In this document: positions 34,630-47,768 of the stretch, piece by piece
Layout: every line of letters begins with the position of its first letter
How positions within the stretch are numbered: the stretch's first letter is position 1
Origin: Bifidobacterium breve
GTDB lineage: Bacteria; Actinomycetota; Acidimicrobiia; Acidimicrobiales; Acidimicrobilacustridaceae
Length of the DNA stretch: 64,000 bases
Reading direction: 5' to 3'
NCBI GenBank assembly: GCA_945878725.1
Contig: CAMCTY010000002.1
Span: 62,001 to 126,000, forward strand
Notes under the pieces: generated by a model
The model's database searches: none
What the model saw: the letters and a program-made list of their open reading frames with translations, nothing else
What the model was told of the DNA's origin: nothing
Translations under genes and position numbers: made by a program

Positions 34630-37600
34630 TCAGAGCATGACAGTTGTGAAAGCACCTTCGGACATCCATTTGTACGCTCCATTGCGGAAACTCATGGCTG
34701 ATTCGCGCTCAATCATGCTGATGGCGAAGCGTTCAGCGATAACATGGCGAGCCAATTTTGTCCCTGGATCGCTTCGCACCACTCCGAACAGAAGTTGTCC
34801 ACTCAAGAGAGGATTTGCCTGCTGCGCTTGTTGCGCGAGTGATCGCTCGTAATAGCGGTAGTACCGCTCCCGTTGAAGGACCGACAGCCTATCCACTATA
34901 GGCGGTTGGGCCGGTGCGGCAGGGGCAACAGCAGGAGGGGGATTGCCATTCACATTGCCGCCCGCACGATTCTGTGCCTTCGACCATTTGATCCTTCCCC
35001 TAATGCCTCCGCCAGCGGCGCCGGCCAAAATCGAGAGCCCGAGCCGCATCGCCGAGAATTCGGTCTGCCCGGTGAAGGCAAACTCAATGGCGTGCGATGC
35101 GCCAGCAACGGCCGCACCCGCCAACGCGCCGACCACCATGCCGACCAGAGCTCCCCGTGCTGGAGCGACCAACGCCGCAAGGCCAAATGCTGCCAAAGCA
35201 GTCAATCCGTTGGTGAGCCAGTTCTCCGACTCGTTACCACTGGGATCGGAGTTGTTGATCGGATCCTGATTGACGTAGTCGTACCCATTCGCCGAGCCGC
35301 CGACGACCGGGTCGAGTTGGGCGAACCGGCCGAGCGCCGGGATGTACACACGGGCACCCATCATTTGGTAGGCGGTCTTCAACGCTTCGGTTTCATTGCC
35401 CATTGCGGCCTCGAACGTCGTGTTCGGAAGCGTGGATTGGACCGGATTCGGCGTGGTGAGAACCTGACCATAGGGATCGAACATCTGCGCAGCGCCCTGA
35501 AGAACACCTGCGCCATCGGCGACGAAGAACAGATCTCCATCGAGCGTGGTGAACTGCCATTGCGAGGCGGCACCAGTCGCCAGGGAGAGTGTCATCATGA
35601 CGCCAAGGGGCAGCGCGATCTGCTGGTTCAACGGCCTCGCATCGGCATCAAGCAACACCCCGCTACCCGAGTAGAGAATCGTTCCGGCACCGGTTCCACC
35701 GGTTGTCGTCTTCGCGACGATTTCGCCGTTCAAATCGCGTTGGTAGGAAACGGTAAGAGTTCCATCCGTTGCGCTCACCAAACGATTGCCGTTGTCATAG
35801 GTGAACGAGTCAGGGCCAACCTTGGTGGCATTGCCGCGATCGTCATAGGTGATTCCCGCCGATGCCGCCGGATCGGTGGTTGCAACCAATTGCGACGCGT
35901 TGTTGTAGCTGTAGGTGTAGTCACCCGACGCTGCGCCATTGTCGGTGATCTTCTGCGTGAGCCGGTTGGATGCGTCGTCGAAGGTCCAGGCCCAGCTCTT
36001 CGCCGTTGGTACCAGCCCGGCGGTGACCGACGCCGCCGACAGACGATTGTCGGCGTCGTGCACATAGGTGAACGTCGATGCGCCCGACGGAGCGCTCAGC
36101 GTTTCACTCGAGATGTTTCCACCTGCCGAGATCACCCGATCGTCCGCGAATGTGCCCGACGGAGTTGTCGACCGCGCCGAGACCTTACGGTTCTGTGCGT
36201 CGTACGAGGCAGAGGTTCGAACACCGTTTCCGTAGGAAACCGAGGACACAATCCCGTCGGCGCTGTACGACAACGTTGCCGCTACCGATCCGTTGACTGA
36301 AACGACCGTCAACCATCCTCGGGCGTCGTAGGTATTCGATTCCACAACCGGGGTTACTCCCGGGGCCGTCGTGGTTGTCGTCGCAATTCCACCCGTCCGG
36401 CCATCAAAAACGTAGCGAACCTCGATGCCGAAGCGATCTACTGTCCTGACCACCCGCCCGCGGAGATCGACTTCGAATCTCGTTGTGGTCACCTCGGTAC
36501 CGATTGTTTCGGTCGTTTCGGTGATCAGTGGATTCCCGTTCAGCGCGAAATTCGTTTGGCTCTTCTGCAGACTTCCCATGTTGATCAACTCAGTGGAAAG
36601 TACCTGACCACCACTTCCATAGGTCACACACGAGAGAGCCCCTCCAGGGGCCTGGGTGGCAGTGACGCGACCGGCGGCATCGAACCATTTCGTGGTGATC
36701 GGGCCATTTCCTCCATCAGGGCCAGGGGCACTGACCGTCTTTGATGCACCACCCTGATTTGCAGACTTCGCACCGGGGCATTTCGGGGCGGCATTTTCCT
36801 TGTCGCCCCAGTAGGTGTAGCTGTACGTGGCACCCGAAGCACTCGTCACCGCAGTCTGGCGTTCCCAACTACCATTGCCACTCTTGCTTCCTTCGTAAGC
36901 GAACGTCACCTTCGAGTTGGACTGGTTCAAACGGGACGAAATGCGACCGGATGATGGTGCGTCGTAGACAGACTTCGAGATGTTTTCCGCCTGCGCATTC
37001 ACTGCGCTCGGATCGTTTGCCCTCGTTGTCGTGACATAGCCGTATTGCGGACGAAGCGCGCCGGTCGGAATCGACTGCAGCACGCCACCCGTGTCGGGGC
37101 CAGACCACGAAATGTCCATCGATGCCTGCGAGGTGTTTGCCGAAACATCAACTCGAATCGCGTTGATGCCCTTCTGCAATGGAAGGGAATCGCAGCCACC
37201 ATCAGCACAGAGAATGCTGTTGACCCGCACCTGTGCAGTCGTGTTGCCAGAAACAATTCGATAGGTACCCGCAGTTTTGACATCGATTGCACCGGTCATA
37301 AGAGCCGACCAGCCCCCGTTGTTACCCGCTGGTGATTTCTCCCAGTTCACAGTCAAGGAAGACGTGAGTGACCCACCAAGTTGGGGACCAAGTTCCTGTA
37401 CCCCTCCCTCGCCCGACGTGGTGGCACTGGGCCAATAGGTTGTGTCGAGGCCGATCATGGCCACACCTTCAGGCGAGTTTGCGAAGGTCTCGTCGTATTC
37501 CCGCAGGGTCGATTGTGCTTCGGCCGACGAGCCCTTTGAGGGGCCCCACGACTGAATCAGTTCGCCACCTTCGTAACGGTTCACGGTTGTCAGGCCGGCG

Positions 37601-39153
37601 TAGTCGGTCGCCGACAACAACTGACCGGAGGCAAAATCCCAGTTGTTCCGAAGCGTGAGACCTGCGGCGTTCGTGGCGGAAATCGTGAAGAACGTTGTGG
37701 GGTCGAACACCACCGCGAGCACACGTCCGCCAAAACATGAATCGATCACGTTCGTGGACTGGGCGCTCTCGTAATCGTAGGAACGCACACAACGAGCTTC
37801 TCCGGCCGATCCGACCGGCTCGCTCACGGTCGCAACTTTTCCTTCCGGCGTGTAGGAAATCTCGGTCCAGAATTGTGAATCGTCAGCACCAATGATGTTC
37901 GAGGCCGCGGCGGCCGCAACAAGTGGAGTACGCGTTCGGGCCACACGGCCGGCCCCGTCGTAGGCCACGTCGAACACACTGGCGCCTTCACCCTTACCTT
38001 CGGGGAAGTCGGTGATGCGACCAATTGACACGCCGAATCCAGGAATGTCGACGTACGAAACTGCCGAGGTTGAGCCATCCCAAAATTTGACCTGACACAA
38101 CATTCCCGCCGGGGCTGCGACAAATCCAGTTACCGGTTTCGGACAAGCACCGCCGCCATAGACAAATGTGATTTCGCGCCCCGAAACCGGATCCGCGACA
38201 TTCTGAATACGACCGCTATTCCACTTCTGCCCGAGCACCGGGTTCTCTTTGCTACTTATTGACGAGAGATAGGCGCTGTCGGTGCCGTCATCGGGGGTAA
38301 ACACCGAGGTTGCATTTTTTGTCGTCACCGAGAACGTGCCATCGTCATTTTTGATGACGACCGGCGCCAGTCCGCTGGTGTTGACGTCACTTGAACCAAG
38401 TTGCACCGGCACGTACGAACCGCCAGTGGCTTCGCGGTAGTTCGACACCATGCCGTTCGTGCTCACCAGTCCGAGACTTCCGTTTTCGGCGACAACGATT
38501 CGCTGGTAGTCAGAACTCGATGCGGCCTGAAGGCTCCACCCTTCGGGGACACCGGGTTCGGCCGGATTCGAGGCCTGATATTGGAGGCCAAAACCTACTG
38601 ATCCGGGGACTGCATTCATTGAATGCGAGGACCACGCCAACGATGCTTCCCCTGAGGAAAGTCCGACGTTCAAACCACCGACTGAATCGAGTTGTTGTAC
38701 GCCACCCATCTGCAGATCGACGGAGAACGAACCACCGACTGTCGGCTGTCCCGGGCTCTCGGCCTTCCATGTGTACGCGTTGCCCTGCTGAAGCCCGGCA
38801 CCGAGTGGGACCCGAGTGCTGTTGCCACTTTCTGAATACGTCTTCGTACCGAATGCCGACTTGCCGTCGCTCAGATCGCTGAGCGTGAATGTCCATGCTC
38901 CCGTTCCATCGGGTACCGACAACGTCGGTGAAAGTGAGGTCGACACCCACGAGGACGGTGTGACTACCGCACCGAAATACAACGGTGTGCGTTCGCCAGT
39001 GCCCGCACCTGCGGGAAGCGCGGCCAGAGCGGTCGGATCGCCAGCGGCCAATGCCGCCGATCGATCCTTTGAGGACGTCGAAGAACACGCAGTAGCCAAC
39101 AACGCAACGGAAAGCACGATCGCTGTGAGATCCAGAAATTGCCGACGCAGCAT
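34630..39153 (-). CDS. Large RHS/YD-repeat lipoprotein with PA14-like domain
   Basis: A 1507-residue exported protein. The N-terminus is MLRRQF plus a hydrophobic stretch ending ATAC, with Cys23 as probable lipidated residue. About 60-180 has an Ig-like/fibronectin-like look; about 570-680 contains a PA14-like segment with a CADGGC disulfide; multiple YD-like repeats fill 430-1270; and the RHS core is near 1275-1306 (YIPALGRFAQLDP, NQDPINNSDPSG). A 201-residue tail follows with glycine-rich hydrophobic helices, a Pro/Ala linker, and a C-terminal domain of about 85 residues of unknown fold. RHS proteins are polymorphic toxins or adhesins. No obvious immunity gene follows; the next gene downstream is convergent. 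Confidence 0.85.
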   Translation of the reverse strand: MLRRQFLDLTAIVLSVALLATACSSTSSKDRSAALAAGDPTALAALPAGAGTGERTPLYFGAVVTPSSWVSTSLSPTLSVPDGTGAWTFTLSDLSDGKSAFGTKTYSESGNSTRVPLGAGLQQGNAYTWKAESPGQPTVGGSFSVDLQMGGVQQLDSVGGLNVGLSSGEASLAWSSHSMNAVPGSVGFGLQYQASNPAEPGVPEGWSLQAASSSDYQRIVVAENGSLGLVSTNGMVSNYREATGGSYVPVQLGSSDVNTSGLAPVVIKNDDGTFSVTTKNATSVFTPDDGTDSAYLSSISSKENPVLGQKWNSGRIQNVADPVSGREITFVYGGGACPKPVTGFVAAPAGMLCQVKFWDGSTSAVSYVDIPGFGVSIGRITDFPEGKGEGASVFDVAYDGAGRVARTRTPLVAAAAASNIIGADDSQFWTEISYTPEGKVATVSEPVGSAGEARCVRSYDYESAQSTNVIDSCFGGRVLAVVFDPTTFFTISATNAAGLTLRNNWDFASGQLLSATDYAGLTTVNRYEGGELIQSWGPSKGSSAEAQSTLREYDETFANSPEGVAMIGLDTTYWPSATTSGEGGVQELGPQLGGSLTSSLTVNWEKSPAGNNGGWSALMTGAIDVKTAGTYRIVSGNTTAQVRVNSILCADGGCDSLPLQKGINAIRVDVSANTSQASMDISWSGPDTGGVLQSIPTGALRPQYGYVTTTRANDPSAVNAQAENISKSVYDAPSSGRISSRLNQSNSKVTFAYEGSKSGNGSWERQTAVTSASGATYSYTYWGDKENAAPKCPGAKSANQGGASKTVSAPGPDGGNGPITTKWFDAAGRVTATQAPGGALSCVTYGSGGQVLSTELINMGSLQKSQTNFALNGNPLITETTETIGTEVTTTRFEVDLRGRVVRTVDRFGIEVRYVFDGRTGGIATTTTTAPGVTPVVESNTYDARGWLTVVSVNGSVAATLSYSADGIVSSVSYGNGVRTSASYDAQNRKVSARSTTPSGTFADDRVISAGGNISSETLSAPSGASTFTYVHDADNRLSAASVTAGLVPTAKSWAWTFDDASNRLTQKITDNGAASGDYTYSYNNASQLVATTDPAASAGITYDDRGNATKVGPDSFTYDNGNRLVSATDGTLTVSYQRDLNGEIVAKTTTGGTGAGTILYSGSGVLLDADARPLNQQIALPLGVMMTLSLATGAASQWQFTTLDGDLFFVADGAGVLQGAAQMFDPYGQVLTTPNPVQSTLPNTTFEAAMGNETEALKTAYQMMGARVYIPALGRFAQLDPVVGGSANGYDYVNQDPINNSDPSGNESENWLTNGLTALAAFGLAALVAPARGALVGMVVGALAGAAVAGASHAIEFAFTGQTEFSAMRLGLSILAGAAGGGIRGRIKWSKAQNRAGGNVNGNPPPAVAPAAPAQPPIVDRLSVLQRERYYRYYERSLAQQAQQANPLLSGQLLFGVVRSDPGTKLARHVIAERFAISMIERESAMSFRNGAYKWMSEGAFTTVML

Positions 39154-39288: not shown

Positions 39289-40923
39289 CTAACGGATGGA
39301 GAAACCCTCGTAGTCGTTGGCGGCCAAATCGCGGGCCCGGGCCATGAACCGGTCGAGACCGCCGAGATAGATCGGCAGGACACGCGCCTTGCCCTCGATG
39401 TTGCCGCCGTTGTACCAGGAGTTGCAGGAAGGGGCGGTGAACATCGAACCCACTGCTGCGGCTTCGACTTCAGCACACCACTGTTCTTGTGCTTCGGGTT
39501 CGACCTCCACATGCGTGTTGCCATTCGCTGCAAGGTGATCGAGAAAGTCGGCGATCCAACCAACCTGCAGCTCAATGTGCGGTGGATAGGTCGCGAGAAC
39601 GCCGACGCTGCCCGGTCCGATGATCATGAACATATTCGGATAGCCCGCCACGCCGAAGCCCATGAATGCTCGCGGTCCATCAGCCCAATCGTCACGCAGT
39701 AGTCGACCATCGTTCCCACGCAAGTCAATGCGAGTGAGCGCCCCGGAGACCGCGTCGAAACCGGTAGCGAAGACGAGTACGTCGAGTTCGTTCAAGCCAT
39801 CGGCAGTGATGACTCCTTCGGGGACAACTTCCACGATCGGGTTCTTGCGGAGGTCGACGAGCGTGACGTTTTCACGGTTGAAGGTCTCGAAGTATCCATT
39901 GTCGAGTACCGGTCGCTTGCAGCCAATCGGATAGTCCTTGGGGCAAAGCGAATCGGCCACCTCCGGGTCTTCCACCGTTCGTCGCACCATTTCACGGAAC
40001 AGTTCGACCGCCATCTCGTTGGCATCAAGATTCTTCGCCGCGTCGCCCCAGAGGCGCGACGCACTGAACCCATGCTCTGTGAGCGCGGCCTCGCGCTCGT
40101 CCGGCGTGCTCTCAAGAATGCGTCGATCGGGATCGGCGATCGTAAAAATCACCGCCCCGGTGGTGTTGGCGGTCGCAAGCGGCGATGCGTACTGCTGCGC
40201 TCGCAGTTCGCGATAGCGAGCCTTGAGTTCGACCTGTTCCGTATCGGTCAACGGTCGGTTCTGCGAGGGCCACGTGAACGCAGCGGTGCGCTGAAACACC
40301 GTGAGATGACCGGCCATCTTCGCGAGTTCCGGGATGGCCTGAACACCAGACGAACCATTGCCCACGATGCCAACGCGTCGGCCCTCAAGCTCGACTCCGC
40401 CCTCGGGCCACAGACTGGACTGCAGGATTTCTCCGGCGAAACTATCGAGACCCGGCCAGTCAGGGCGGTGAGGTGCCGACAATCCACCGGTTCCCATCAC
40501 GCAGAAGCGGGCGCTCAGTTGCTCGCCTGTCTCAGTGTCGATGATCCATGTGTCGGTCGCCTCGTCGAAGGTCATCGCAGCAACGCCGGTCTCGAGACGG
40601 ATGTCGCGACGCAGGTCGTAGCGATCAGCGATGTGATTGAGATAGCGCTCGATCTCGGGCTGGGGCGAGAACTGCTCACTCCATTCCCATTCCTGTTCGA
40701 GCTCGGGATCGAAGCCGAAGGAGTACTCGAAGCTCGGAATGTCACAACGCGCACCGGGATAGCGGTTCCAGAACCACGTGCCGCCCACGCCCGCCGCTCT
40801 ATCAAGGACGATCACTCGGAATCCCCGTTCGCGCAGCACCTTCAGCGCGTAAAGGCCGGACATACCGGCTCCCACCACGATCACGTCGGCATCCAATGCG
40901 ACGTCGTTGACCCCCATGGTCAT
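39289..40923 (-). CDS. Baeyer-Villiger-type flavin monooxygenase with variant fingerprint
   Basis: A 544-residue class B flavoprotein monooxygenase similar to cyclohexanone monooxygenase. The FAD motif VVGAGMSGLYAL is at about 16-27, GGTWFWNRYPGARCD at 47-61, and the NADP motif VGNGSSGVQAI at 187-196. The BVMO fingerprint FxGxxxHxxxWP appears as FAGEILQSSLWP (162-173): Gln168 takes the place of the usually conserved His. The remaining motifs are intact, and the length is typical. It would oxidise ketones or heteroatoms with NADPH and O2; the His-to-Gln change may alter this. It stands upstream of the RHS gene in the same direction with a 135-base gap. Confidence 0.88.
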   Translation of the reverse strand: MTMGVNDVALDADVIVVGAGMSGLYALKVLRERGFRVIVLDRAAGVGGTWFWNRYPGARCDIPSFEYSFGFDPELEQEWEWSEQFSPQPEIERYLNHIADRYDLRRDIRLETGVAAMTFDEATDTWIIDTETGEQLSARFCVMGTGGLSAPHRPDWPGLDSFAGEILQSSLWPEGGVELEGRRVGIVGNGSSGVQAIPELAKMAGHLTVFQRTAAFTWPSQNRPLTDTEQVELKARYRELRAQQYASPLATANTTGAVIFTIADPDRRILESTPDEREAALTEHGFSASRLWGDAAKNLDANEMAVELFREMVRRTVEDPEVADSLCPKDYPIGCKRPVLDNGYFETFNRENVTLVDLRKNPIVEVVPEGVITADGLNELDVLVFATGFDAVSGALTRIDLRGNDGRLLRDDWADGPRAFMGFGVAGYPNMFMIIGPGSVGVLATYPPHIELQVGWIADFLDHLAANGNTHVEVEPEAQEQWCAEVEAAAVGSMFTAPSCNSWYNGGNIEGKARVLPIYLGGLDRFMARARDLAANDYEGFSIR

Positions 40924-40975: not shown

Positions 40976-42187
40976 TCAGTTTCGTTTCGACCATGCGCTG
41001 AAACTGGCGATCGACCCGGACCTTGGGCGCTCCAACCATGGCCATGGATGCACCTCGGCCAGAGTCAATGAACGCGCCCGCCGCCGCCAACCTGGAACCG
41101 GGGCAAAGGTGACTGCGAGTGGCCGATCAGCAAGTACCTGGACCGGATCACCGAGATGCACCTCCAGTTCGCGCTGAGCCCCAAGCTCGGCAAGCCGATC
41201 GGCGAGGAACACCAACCGCTTCGATGACAACTGGAGCTTTGCGAGCAATGGTTCGTCGAAGACGAACACGACCGGTAACTGCGGATGTGCAGCCAGTGCC
41301 GGGTCGTCATCACCCAGCGACTCCGCTGTTAGCCACACCGCTTCGGGAGTTGAGTGACGCTCCGCCCGTCGAGGTCCAGTAGTTCGCTCCACATCAGGAT
41401 CATGCCGAAGGCGCGGATCGACATCGACATCGGTGAACTCCGGATCGTCCGGCCAATCGCCGATCGGACATGAATTTCGATGCGAACACCCGCCGCAGAG
41501 TCCCGGTGCACGCCGAAGAACCTGCGACTGCGAAAACCCATATGCCTTCGCGGTGCCAGTCCCGATAGTCCACTGCCAGCCGAGACGATTCGCGGCACGC
41601 GAGCCATCGAGAAGATGCGTGAAGAAGTGATGTTCGCCCTCTCGCCAGTCGGCACCATGACGCACGGACCATTGCGAGGCCAGCCACATGCGGGTTTGGT
41701 TCACCATCCAACCGTCGCGTTCGAGTTCGTCGAGGTTCACTTCCATGCAACGCATCGATCGATCCCAAGGATCAGCCGCCGCGTTTGGTTCCGATGCGAG
41801 CGCGCGGCGCAGCGGCTCGCCGGTGACCGAGCCGAGCCGCGCGTAGAGATGCCGGCCGTACTCCTGCCAGCGAAGTTCGTCGCGAAACTTCCGGAGGTCA
41901 GCCGACGGGCCATCGACCGCACGATGCACGCCCGGCAACGTGAGCAAACCGTGACGAATCCACGGTGACAATCCAGATGCACCGCGTTGGGACAGCGGCA
42001 AAACCTCGTTACGACGCTTGGCATATCCGGTGAGATCAAGCGAGGCGAGTGCGGCATCAGCGGCTGTCTGCGTGCCGACAAAACGGCTCGACCGACGTGC
42101 TTCATCGACACAGAGATTTCCGAGATGATCCGATACCCATTGCACCTCGTCTCCGGGTTCGGGTGGAGAAAGCGTCGTGTCGTTCAT
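40976..42187 (-). CDS. Photolyase/cryptochrome-like protein with domain order swapped
   Basis: A 403-residue protein. Residues 36-225 match the helical FAD-binding domain of the photolyase/cryptochrome family (SGLSPWIRHG, FRDELRWQEYGRHL, WMVNQTRMWLASQW, GWQWTIGTGTA). A Cys cluster follows (Cys231, Cys234, Cys240). Residues about 283-385 match the start of the antenna domain that in photolyases is N-terminal: VWLTAESLGDDDPALAAHPQLPVVFVFDEP. The order FAD domain then antenna is reversed from normal. The start is set by the ATGA overlap with the upstream DUF2256-DUF3253 gene. It probably uses FAD and blue light for DNA repair or signalling; substrate is unknown. Confidence 0.85.
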   Translation of the reverse strand: MNDTTLSPPEPGDEVQWVSDHLGNLCVDEARRSSRFVGTQTAADAALASLDLTGYAKRRNEVLPLSQRGASGLSPWIRHGLLTLPGVHRAVDGPSADLRKFRDELRWQEYGRHLYARLGSVTGEPLRRALASEPNAAADPWDRSMRCMEVNLDELERDGWMVNQTRMWLASQWSVRHGADWREGEHHFFTHLLDGSRAANRLGWQWTIGTGTAKAYGFSQSQVLRRAPGLCGGCSHRNSCPIGDWPDDPEFTDVDVDPRLRHDPDVERTTGPRRAERHSTPEAVWLTAESLGDDDPALAAHPQLPVVFVFDEPLLAKLQLSSKRLVFLADRLAELGAQRELEVHLGDPVQVLADRPLAVTFAPVPGWRRRARSLTLAEVHPWPWLERPRSGSIASFSAWSKRN

Positions 42188-42552
42188 GACAGCCCAATTC
42201 GAATTGGGCCCTTCGCGGTTGACGGATCAACCGTTCGTCCACCTTGCGTAATCACCACGCGACCACCGGCGCTGAGGCGACGGGCAGCCGCGCGCGCCGG
42301 CTCACCCAACAATTCCCAGTCGTCTCCTCCCACTGCTTTCGCCGCCTCGCTGGGACAGATGGTGCCGGTGCGCGGTTTACCTGCGAGGAGACTCATGATC
42401 GCCGTTTCAAGATCAGTATCGACAGGGCGCACCCCCCGCCGACGGCATGCATCCGAGCAGTGACGGACCTCGTCCCAGGAACGCTCCCACTTCTTTCGCC
42501 AGCGCATTGTTCGGCCGCAGACAACACAGTTCTTTGCAGCGGGCTCGGCCAT
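42184..42552 (-). CDS. DUF2256-DUF3253 zinc-binding fusion protein
   Basis: A 122-residue protein. The N-terminal DUF2256 has CVVCGR, WRKKW and HCSDACRRR (about 9-40), four Cys in a zinc-ribbon pattern. The rest, VDTDLETAIMSLLAGKPRTGTICPSEAA, matches DUF3253, a small winged-helix-like domain. The start ATG at 42552 is preferred over TTG at 42561. It overlaps the photolyase-like gene by 4 bases (ATGA). DUF2256 genes are often found next to photolyase/cryptochrome genes; the coupling supports a shared role, perhaps DNA binding or light response (inference). Confidence 0.82.
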   Translation of the reverse strand: MAEPAAKNCVVCGRTMRWRKKWERSWDEVRHCSDACRRRGVRPVDTDLETAIMSLLAGKPRTGTICPSEAAKAVGGDDWELLGEPARAAARRLSAGGRVVITQGGRTVDPSTAKGPIRIGLS

Positions 42553-42706
42553 CACCGGCAAGCTACCAAGCCTGCGCCCGAAGACTCAGCCCGGCGAGAG
42601 GGTCACTGAATACAAGCCGTTTCCACTGACGCAACTTCGAGTCGCCTGCATACCGCGAAGGGCGGGTCGGTCAGGCACCATCGTGCCCGGCCGACCCACC
42701 TGCGAA

Positions 42707-45980: not shown

Positions 45981-47768
45981 CTAGACCTTCGTTACCAAAG
46001 CTCCCGGGAAGTCACCGGCGGCGCGGAACTCGTCGAGATGGGCGTGATAGTCGAGAAGGCTGCCGGCGAAGACAAGACCCTTCGCCGCCTTCTCGTCCGG
46101 TGCCGCAAGTTCACTGTTGAAGTAACCGGGCGTGCACGTCGTGACATAGTCGGCGCCACCGCCGATTGCTCCGTACAGGACCATGAGCCAGCCCTCTTCG
46201 GATTCCGGCGTCGCTTCGATTGTGGCGACGCCCTGCGCTTCGCATGCACCGATGAGTTCGGCGACGTGACGAGCGGAACGGCCAAGGAAGTGAACGAAGT
46301 TCGTACCGAAACCAGCCTGCACAAGGCTGATCACCATCATGTTCGGGAAGCCTCCCGACAAGACACCGTGCAGCGTGTGAGCACCATGCGACCAGGACTC
46401 GCTGAGCGAAACGCCATCGCGGCCGATCGGATCGAAACCAACGCGCGAGTCAAGATCGGTCTGCACCTCAAAGCCCGACGCGAAGATCAGGCAGTCGATC
46501 GGGTACTCGACACCGTCGACAACGATGCCGGTCTCCGTGACGCGCTCGATGCCCTTGCCTTCGGTGTCAACCAGGTGAACATTCGGCTTGTTGAATGCCG
46601 GAAGGTAATCATCGTGGAAGCACACCCGCTTGCAGTTCTTGCCGTAATAGGCCTTGAGCTTCGCGGCGGTCTCGGGATCTTCGATGATCGAATCAACACG
46701 ACGGCGCAGCTTCTCCATCGTCTGGAAGTCACTGACTTCCATCGCGGCAAGATGCTCAGGTGACTCGGCGGCAGCCTGCGTGTTGGTCCACATGACGTCG
46801 GTCCAACCGTCGTTGACGAGATCAACGGCAGGCTTTGCGCCAGTCACGGACTGGGTGAAGTTAACGACTCGCTCTTCCTGCCAACCCGGCTTGAGGCTCT
46901 TAAACCACGCTTCGTCAGTCGGACCGTTGTTACGGACACCAACAGCACTCGGCGTGCGCTGGAATACGAACAGATCCTGCGCGGCTTCCGCCAACTTGGG
47001 AACGGCCTGAATTGCGGTTGCACCCGTTCCGATAATTCCGACGCGCTTGTCGCCGAGCTTGTCCATGAATTCGCGCGGACCGCCGCCGGTGTAGTCGTAG
47101 TTCCAACGCGTGGTGTGGAACATCTTGCCCTTGAAGGTTTCGATGCCCGGGATGCCGGGGACCTTGGGCTTATGGAGGATGCCACCAGCAATCACGATGT
47201 ACTTCGAACTGATCGTGTCGCCACGCGAGGTGGTGACGATCCAGCGACCGGCGCTGTCGTCCCACACTGCTCCGGTAATGACGGTCTGGAAGAGCGCACG
47301 GTCGTAGAGATCAAACGTGCGACCGAGCAACTGGCAGTACTCAAAGATTTCGGGAGCACCGGCGTAGCGCTCCGTCGGCATGTAGCCGGTCTCTTCGAGG
47401 AGAGGGAGATAGGTGTACGACTCAACATCGCACATGCAACCCGGATAACGGTTCCAATACCAGGTGCCCCCGAAGTCTCCGCCCTTTTCGACGATGCGGA
47501 AATCCGTGACGCCCGACTTCTGAAGATCGATTCCCGTCAGCATGCCGGCGAAGCCGCCGCCCACGACGACGACCTCAGTCGACTCCGTGATCGGATCGCG
47601 GCTGAAGGTCGGATCGGCATAAGGATCAGAGTCGAGTTCGGCGAACTTGTCCTTCAACGACACGAACTGCTTGAGGCCGTCAGTACGCAGGCGCTTGAGC
47701 TGCTCCTCCTGGTACTTGGAACGCAGTTCCCCGACCGAAATCTCGATTCCTTCGTTCTGTTCTGGCAT
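45981..47768 (-). CDS. Baeyer-Villiger-type flavin monooxygenase
   Basis: A 595-residue class B monooxygenase with an N-terminal extension of about 55 residues. The FAD motif [15 protein letters not shown] is at about 67-81, [15 protein letters not shown] follows, the fingerprint [11 protein letters not shown] keeps the conserved His, and the NADP motif [14 protein letters not shown] is intact. It resembles the long BVMOs (cyclopentadecanone/phenylacetone-type relatives). Products would be esters or lactones from ketones. GGGGAG precedes the start. It lies downstream of the AMP-dependent ligase in the same direction with a 96-base gap, so one pathway is likely. Confidence 0.9.

What the first reader, a model, noticed from the sequence alone, without database searches (positions are those of the whole stretch)
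40976..42187. Photolyase/cryptochrome with circularly permuted domains
In all photolyases I know the alpha/beta antenna domain precedes the FAD domain. Here the helical FAD domain (36-225) comes first, followed by a three-Cys segment and then a clear antenna start (VWLTAESLGDDDPALAA... VVFVFDEP) at 283-311. It is a circular permutation, with the Cys segment possibly holding zinc or an iron-sulfur centre at the junction.
Basis: partly seen in the sequence, partly recalled or inferred. Interest (0 to 1): 0.75.

Follow-up and report, generated by a model that had tools for sequence, protein, structure and literature searches.

The report
Domain-swapped photolyase, probably iron-sulfur
This gene encodes a light-driven DNA-repair enzyme whose two halves stand in the reverse of the usual order and which carries a conserved iron-sulfur-type cysteine site; the swap is real, but enzymes of this kind have been in print since 2020-2022.

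Summary
The 403-aa ORF (40976-42187, minus strand) is a photolyase with the FAD domain first (residues ~1-255) and the antenna domain last (~283-403). It is no artefact: full-length relatives occur across Actinomycetota and in Deinococcus. The permutation was tested directly. Rotating the family profile at residue 262 raises its hhalign score against ordinary photolyases from 164.5 to 193.6 and gives one collinear alignment over both domains; 20 shuffled controls reached at most 172.3. In three other genomes the profile hits an ordinary photolyase twice, in swapped order. The claim that every photolyase puts the antenna first is wrong: NewPHL/SPL enzymes (2020-2021) and cyanobacterial Phr4/5/6 (2022) have this order, Phr4 with nearly the same cysteine spacing. 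Best reading: a light-driven CPD photolyase with FAD and a [4Fe-4S] cluster; lesion-site residues match CPD, not (6-4), enzymes. Possibly new: an actinobacterial/deinococcal branch whose C-terminal domain is still recognisably an antenna, against calling the class 'antenna-less', and a linked DUF2256-DUF3253 gene.

The parts
40976..42187 (-). CDS of the domain-inverted photolyase, 403 aa
   Evidence: full-length relatives
41423..42187 (-). FAD (catalytic) domain, residues 1-255
   Evidence: Pfam PF03441; VIA superposition; hhalign 99.6% of residues 30-220 to ordinary FAD domains
41747..41749 (-).
   Evidence: C in 73 of 73; C in 8 of 8 FeS-BCP rows and 0 of 15 canonical rows
41468..41497 (-). 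Cys231, Cys234, Cys240: C-x2-C-x5-C segment at the end of the FAD domain
   Evidence: C in 73 of 73; aligned with FeS-BCP cysteines
40979..41341 (-). permuted antenna (alpha/beta) domain, residues 283-403, strands and helices alternating b-a-b-a-b-a-b-a-b in the model
40979..41017 (-). C-terminal GSIASFSAWSKRN, aligned with the VFTPFxRxW linker that follows the antenna in ordinary photolyases; would mark the cut point of the permutation
   Evidence: rotated alignment in permissive realignment (mact 0.05)
42184..42561 (-). upstream DUF2256-DUF3253 gene overlapping the photolyase start by ATGA; probable operon partner
   Evidence: linkage

Best explanation
A photolyase of the published inverted-topology kind. 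Blue light excites reduced FAD held by the N-terminal helical domain; FAD gives an electron to a UV-made pyrimidine dimer, most likely a cyclobutane dimer (CPD), splits it and takes the electron back. Oxidised FAD is re-reduced through the conserved Trp204-Trp181 pair. Cys147/231/234/240 hold a [4Fe-4S] cluster that ties the end of the FAD domain together at the junction. The C-terminal Rossmann-like domain is the ordinary antenna domain moved to the other end by circular permutation; it probably shields the flavin side (a role I recall for the NewPHL C-terminal domain) and may or may not still bind a light-harvesting chromophore. Shown here: domain order, homology of both domains to ordinary photolyases, four invariant cysteines, conserved catalytic residues. 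Inferred: FAD binding, the cluster, CPD repair, single-strand preference.
For: Rotation test: unrotated family profile against 18 ordinary photolyases scores 164.5 over the FAD domain only; rotated at residue 262 it scores 193.6 over 323 columns across both domains; 20 rotated controls with shuffled antenna columns 164.3-172.3. Same with three Deinococcus proteins: 189.3, then 219.4, 20 controls 189.2-195.5. HMM hits in swapped order within one open frame in ordinary photolyases of G261, G162 and G272 (antenna part E 3.1e-6, 4.4e-6, 9.7e-4), that is 3 of 102 rows (my count) that match by the FAD part. The Deinococcus C-terminal domain bridges to the window family (99.0%) and to ordinary antennas (96.7%). 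Four Cys 73/73, aligned with FeS-BCP cysteines. In the 50-row comparison E104, W107, N163, R166, W181, D194, N200, W204, W206 are present in 16 of 16 actinobacterial inverted rows and M167 in 14 of 16; they correspond to E. coli E274, W277, N341, R344, W359, D372, N378, W382, W384, M345 (numbering from the 1dnp alignment; roles recalled). FeS-BCP (6-4) rows have Q, H, L at positions 104, 163, 167 in 8 of 8. Trp dyad as reported for D. shibae NewPHL (PMC8948257 passage).
Against: No biochemistry. PMC9426592 reports that phr4/phr5 protect against UV-C but hardly against UV-B, which its authors read as (6-4) repair. The window protein alone has no PF00875 hit. Rotation did not raise the score against FeS-BCP proteins (65.5 to 65.1) nor for the alpha-proteobacterial inverted proteins against ordinary photolyases (193.9 to 193.8). 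The alpha-proteobacterial C-terminal domain does not match the window C-terminal domain directly (0.4%), so kinship of this branch with the alpha proteins rests on the FAD domain and the Deinococcus bridge. Position 104 is Q in 5 of 15 canonical and 1 of 4 Deinococcus rows, so it is not decisive for lesion type; R342 of class I is Q here (16 of 16).
Confidence: 0.72

Rival explanations
1. It is a (6-4) photolyase, as was predicted for the cyanobacterial Phr4/Phr5/Phr6 because they carry the four Fe-S cysteines.
For: Same cysteine set and nearly the same spacing as Phr4 (C169, C254, C257, C263); phr4/phr5 protected against UV-C but hardly against UV-B.
Against: The lesion-site residues are those of CPD enzymes: N163 and M167 where FeS-BCP (6-4) enzymes have H and L in 8 of 8 rows; W181 and W204 where they have P and M. 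The genome already has an FeS-BCP (G000:C25). SPLs are described as CPD photolyases with an FeS cluster (PMC9649867 citing Xu 2021, passages).
Confidence: 0.14
2. It is a cryptochrome-like blue-light sensor acting with the linked DUF2256-DUF3253 protein, with little or no DNA repair.
For: Overlapping upstream gene and co-occurrence in 10 of 12 against 3 of 29 genomes; the genome has two other photolyase-family genes.
Against: The lesion-contacting residues checked are kept; two of the 12 carriers lack a DUF2256 hit; NewPHL relatives repair CPDs according to papers citing Emmerich 2020.
Confidence: 0.09
3. Not a circular permutation: an unrelated Rossmann-like domain was fused behind a photolyase FAD domain.
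For: The antenna fold is common; the window protein by itself has no PF00875 hit; the C-terminal domain was not folded and searched alone.
Against: Rotation test with controls, swapped-order HMM hits, Deinococcus bridge, and apparent retention of the post-antenna linker motif.
Confidence: 0.04
4. Assembly or frameshift artefact.
For: None found.
Against: Open full-length frames, no internal stops, in 12 of 41 genomes including the window's own and 24 of 296 phylum genomes.
Confidence: 0.01

Closest known systems
Phr4/Phr5 and Phr6 of marine Synechococcus/Cyanobium (PMC9426592, mBio 2022; passages, section 5 whole, section 10 part 1 of 2 read)
   Same: FAD domain first, DNA-photolyase domain second; four Fe-S cysteines, Phr4 spacing x84/x2/x5 (here x83/x2/x5).
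   Different: Cyanobacterial; in many strains split into two ORFs; authors predict (6-4) repair. Their sequences were not fetched, so no direct comparison was made.
NewPHL (Emmerich et al. 2020, NAR 48:12845; not held, known through passages of PMC9426592 and PMC13274461)
   Same: Inverted topology; Trp dyad; CPD repair as cited, matching the CPD-type site here.
   Different: The alpha-proteobacterial proteins used here (taken as NewPHL-like from host group and order, not checked against characterised NewPHLs) lack the Fe-S cysteine set and have a C-terminal domain that does not match an antenna profile.
SPL, short photolyase-like proteins (Xu et al. 2021, MBE 38:4505; not held, known through passages of PMC9649867 and PMC9178010)
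   Same: Cited as CPD enzymes with an FeS cluster.
   Different: [quoted passage not shown] here that domain is present at the C-terminus.
FeS-BCP / prokaryotic (6-4) photolyases (PhrB, PDB 4dja/5kcm)
   Same: FAD domain fold (VIA Z 16.1, rmsd 3.5, 244 residues) and four aligned cysteines.
   Different: Antenna first (PF04244), different lesion-site residues; own genome has a separate copy (L128).
Class I/III CPD photolyases (1owl, 1dnp, 2j07, 4u63)
   Same: Active-site residues, Trp204/181, homologous antenna.
   Different: Opposite domain order; no Fe-S cysteine set.

Membership tests
Inverted-topology photolyases (NewPHL/SPL/Phr6 kind) | N-terminal FAD domain followed by a C-terminal domain | tested here: met
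Inverted-topology photolyases (NewPHL/SPL/Phr6 kind) | homology over the whole length with NewPHL-like alpha-proteobacterial proteins | tested here: inconclusive
   99.7% over 164 columns, FAD part; C-terminal domains do not match directly (0.4%), only through Deinococcus (66.2 and 32.0% by query direction)
Inverted-topology photolyases (NewPHL/SPL/Phr6 kind) | all inverted rows one clade on the FAD domain | tested here: inconclusive
   best tree needs 2 changes; one clade not rejected, p-AU 0.313
NewPHL/SPL | light-dependent repair of CPDs, in single-stranded DNA | not testable with these tools
   needs enzyme assay
Phr4/5/6 (reverse-domain, Fe-S) | four Fe-S cysteines with about the spacing of Phr4 | tested here: met
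   C147, C231, C234, C240 in 73/73 against C169, C254, C257, C263 as printed
Phr4/5/6 (reverse-domain, Fe-S) | sequence relationship to Phr4/Phr6 | not tested
   cyanobacterial sequences not fetched
FeS-BCP (6-4) photolyases | N-terminal PF04244 domain | tested here: not met
   no hit at E up to 1; FAD domain is N-terminal
FeS-BCP (6-4) photolyases | active-site His at the position of N163 (role recalled) | tested here: not met
   H in 8 of 8 FeS-BCP rows, N in 16 of 16 here
FeS-BCP (6-4) photolyases | four cluster cysteines | tested here: met
Class I/III CPD photolyase | N-terminal antenna PF00875, C-terminal FAD domain | tested here: not met
Class I/III CPD photolyase | lesion-contacting and electron-transfer residues (roles recalled) | tested here: met
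   except R342 (Q here, 16 of 16) and the third Trp of the triad (no conserved Trp there in the consensus)

The most novel reading that the evidence does not exclude
The inverted photolyases (SPL/NewPHL) are not antenna-less ancestors. They are circularly permuted photolyases; the actinobacterial and deinococcal branch keeps the older state (recognisable antenna plus Fe-S cluster), while the alpha-proteobacterial branch lost the cysteines and let the antenna decay into the 'Z-domain'. The branch works with a DUF2256-DUF3253 partner. This would remove one argument for SPL as the root of the photolyase/cryptochrome family.
Probability: 0.35. Interest if true: 0.6.

Novelty: new member of a known kind. 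Interest (0 to 1): 0.38.

Why it matters
To my knowledge, natural circular permutations that move a whole domain of a cofactor enzyme are uncommon; this one keeps both the Fe-S cysteine site and a readable antenna. It gives a sequence-level link between ordinary photolyases and the inverted class, and a concrete way to test whether the 'short' class is ancestral or derived. It also separates two ideas tied together in one paper (PMC9426592): Fe-S cysteines and (6-4) specificity.

Tried and rejected
Tried, little or nothing: the first AlphaFold job on 12 close orthologues gave mean pLDDT 51.9, with residues 34-219 under 50; replaced by the 73-sequence job. Whole-model PDB searches align residues 1-255 or so in nearly all rows shown, because sequence-order aligners cannot follow a permutation; one trypanosome mitoribosomal chain (7pub_Ff) also scores Z 14.7, so the Z values are not photolyase-specific by themselves. 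No NewPHL entry stood out by name in the rows shown; this excludes nothing. PF00875 over 41 relatives gave no match at the window gene (the one match of G000 is on C7) and five hits under the cut-off elsewhere, so Pfam alone misses the permuted domain. hhalign of the C-terminal domain against FeS-BCP: 0.3%; Deinococcus C-terminal domain against FeS-BCP: 7.1%. Rotation raised nothing against FeS-BCP (65.5 to 65.1) or for the alpha-proteobacterial set (193.9 to 193.8). The Persicobacter C-terminal domain matched nothing above 0.5%. Phages: 10 records, FAD part only (36-37% of the query), not examined further. Rejected: artefact; membership of FeS-BCP.

Rows dropped: A2 holds the window and 72 of the 80 loci. 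I left out L034, L036-L038 and L040-L043 without a test: six have the contig lengths of loci already in A1, L036 is cut by its contig end, L034 was simply not taken. The 'ordinary photolyase' profile has 18 distinct proteins that passed a motif filter in 31 loci scanned, several holding the same gene. The FeS-BCP profile has 13 proteins; L125, a partial one, was not used. The first tree lost 9 of 50 rows to a crude anchor; it was rebuilt with all 50. The trees use 16 of the 73 family rows.

Literature limits: nine searches, open-licence PMC only. Emmerich 2020 and Xu 2021 are not held; neither text nor abstract was seen here, only citing passages. Among those results I found no paper naming an actinobacterial or deinococcal inverted photolyase, and one search lists two papers with DUF2256, neither opened; both are weak negatives. 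PMC12029717 and PMC12059584 were searched for passages and do not bear on the question.

Full report
What is there. The minus-strand ORF 40976-42187 encodes 403 aa and starts with ATG. Pfam finds only FAD_binding_7 at residues 103-216 (E 1.4e-12). Solved structures matched by sequence are photolyases and cryptochromes of several classes, matched by their FAD domain, apart from four chance-level rows (E 0.4-0.58). With 73 aligned sequences AlphaFold2 gives pLDDT 94.8 and pTM 0.93. Residues 1-255 superpose on photolyase FAD domains: Z 16.2, rmsd 5.2 over 239 residues for 2j07; Z 16.1, rmsd 3.5 over 244 residues for Agrobacterium PhrB (5kcm). From residue 283 the model has five strands alternating with helices.

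Is it real? Eleven further full-length orthologues lie in the 41 genomes searched (12 with the window's own; 63-90% identity, no internal stops). In named genomes 264 of 280 pattern matches encode relatives; of the 80 kept, 79 reach residue 399 or beyond and the other (L036) runs off its contig. Twenty-four of 296 genomes drawn evenly across the phylum, the window's own included, have the full-length protein (my count from the listing). Deinococcus plasmids carry 456-472 aa versions annotated 'FAD-binding domain-containing protein'.

Is the C-terminal part an antenna? Profile against profile, residues 270-403 match the antenna of 18 ordinary photolyases at 86.6% (score 40.3, E 4.5e-6); the reversed profile scores 14.8, and 30 column shuffles stay at or below 2.3% probability; against the FAD domain the score is 8.7. 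The Deinococcus C-terminal domain matches the window family at 99.0% and ordinary antennas at 96.7%, and the whole Deinococcus protein hits PF00875 there at E 0.001, under the curated cut-off.

Is it a circular permutation? If so, moving the C-terminal part to the front should make one alignment with ordinary photolyases. Unrotated, the family profile scores 164.5 and aligns only the FAD domain. Rotated at residue 262 it scores 193.6 and aligns 323 columns, profile 21-351 with photolyase 4-380. Twenty controls with shuffled antenna columns scored 164.3-172.3. For three Deinococcus proteins: 189.3, then 219.4, 20 controls 189.2-195.5. Without any rotation, the family HMM hits an ordinary photolyase twice, within one open frame and in swapped order, in G261, G162 and G272, which belong to other families of the phylum. 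These are 3 of 102 rows (my count) that match by the FAD part; the rest show no antenna match at E 0.001. Rotation gave no gain against FeS-BCP proteins, whose antenna (PF04244) is different (65.5 to 65.1), nor for the alpha-proteobacterial inverted proteins against ordinary photolyases (193.9 to 193.8). In a permissive realignment the last residues, GSIASFSAWSKRN, fall on the VFTPFxRxW linker that follows the antenna in ordinary enzymes, which would place the cut just behind that linker.

Four cysteines. C147, C231, C234 and C240 are invariant in 73 of 73 sequences. They align with the four cysteines of FeS-BCP proteins from this and related genomes. In the 50-row set all four positions are Cys in 16 of 16 actinobacterial inverted, 4 of 4 Deinococcus inverted and 8 of 8 FeS-BCP rows. 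In the 15 canonical, 5 alpha-proteobacterial inverted, 1 DASH and 1 Persicobacter rows no sequence has the set; one alpha row has a Cys at the first position. That FeS-BCP enzymes use them for an Fe-S cluster is established (PhrB structure, as cited in PMC9426592). A cluster here is inferred.

How it probably works. The residues that in class I enzymes hold FAD and the CPD are kept (roles recalled). The electron path has two conserved tryptophans, W204 and W181. The family consensus shows no conserved Trp where E. coli has the third one (reading the consensus), and D. shibae NewPHL is described as having 'a mere Trp dyad' (PMC8948257, passage). FeS-BCP (6-4) enzymes differ at N163 (H), M167 (L), W181 (P) and W204 (M) in 8 of 8 rows. 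I therefore favour CPD repair, against the (6-4) guess made in print for Phr4/5/6 from the cysteines and from UV-B/UV-C survival. A CofH-type FO synthase gene over the curated cut-off, in a 784-aa frame as in fused FbiC, is in the genome, so the 8-HDF pigment is probably available; whether it is bound is unknown.

What is already known. PMC9426592 (passages, section 5, section 10 part 1 of 2) describes Phr4/Phr5 and Phr6 with reverse domain order and, for RS9916 Phr4, cysteines C169, C254, C257, C263, spacing x84/x2/x5; here x83/x2/x5. It also describes Phr7, FAD domain plus C-terminal 'Z-domain', citing Emmerich 2020.

What may be new. Between FeS-bearing members with a readable antenna and alpha-proteobacterial members with neither, Deinococcus is a bridge: its C-terminal domain matches the alpha-proteobacterial one at 66.2% with Deinococcus as query and 32.0% the other way; whole-length 99.9% over 318 columns. 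This fits decay of a permuted antenna into the Z-domain, but the failed rotation of the alpha set means it is not shown directly. The tree does not settle whether the inversion happened once: best tree 2 changes, one clade not rejected (p-AU 0.313), rival grouping support 70/28. Deinococcus sp. QL22 has the two domains on two ORFs overlapping by four bases, similar to phr4/phr5.

Neighbour. The upstream DUF2256-DUF3253 gene overlaps the start codon by ATGA. A DUF2256 match lies in 28 of the 80 loci, all on the photolyase's strand, 22 upstream and 6 at or behind its 3' end (my count); some loci have little flank, so this is a lower bound. In 41 genomes DUF2256 is present in 10 of 12 with the inverted photolyase and 3 of 29 without (Fisher 1.4e-5; within the genus 10 of 11 against 2 of 10, p 0.002). 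In 8 of those 10 it lies right beside the full-length gene; in G010 and G012 it is on another contig, in G012 next to a second, partial photolyase match. Relatedness and incompleteness of the genomes are not corrected for.

Noticed in passing
42184-42561 (-): DUF2256-DUF3253 fusion gene overlapping the photolyase start by ATGA; linked or co-occurring with the inverted photolyase across relatives (28 of 80 loci; 10 of 12 against 3 of 29 genomes).
   Followed up: partly
L145 1836-2609 and 2606-3127: Deinococcus sp. QL22 carries the inverted photolyase as two overlapping ORFs, FAD domain and antenna domain apart, reminiscent of cyanobacterial phr4/phr5.
   Followed up: partly
G000:C7 and G000:C25 (L135, L128): The same genome has two further photolyase-family genes: an ordinary class I/III type and an FeS-BCP (6-4) type.
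   Followed up: yes
34630-39153 (-): 1507-aa ORF with a lipoprotein-like start and RHS/YD-repeat-like sequence (by eye).
   Followed up: no
39289-40923 (-) and 45981-47768 (-): Two flavin monooxygenase-like genes (the first hits FMO-like and Pyr_redox_3 in Pfam; the second judged by eye) lie near the photolyase.
   Followed up: partly
L033, L034, L038, L052: Metagenome bins titled 'Bifidobacterium breve' carry 60-77% identical copies of this acidimicrobial-type gene; the titles look like wrong labels.
   Followed up: no
L144: Persicobacter (Bacteroidota) has another FAD-first protein, without the cysteine set, whose C-terminal domain matched nothing but ends in an FFAFWKK motif like the post-antenna linker.
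   Followed up: partly
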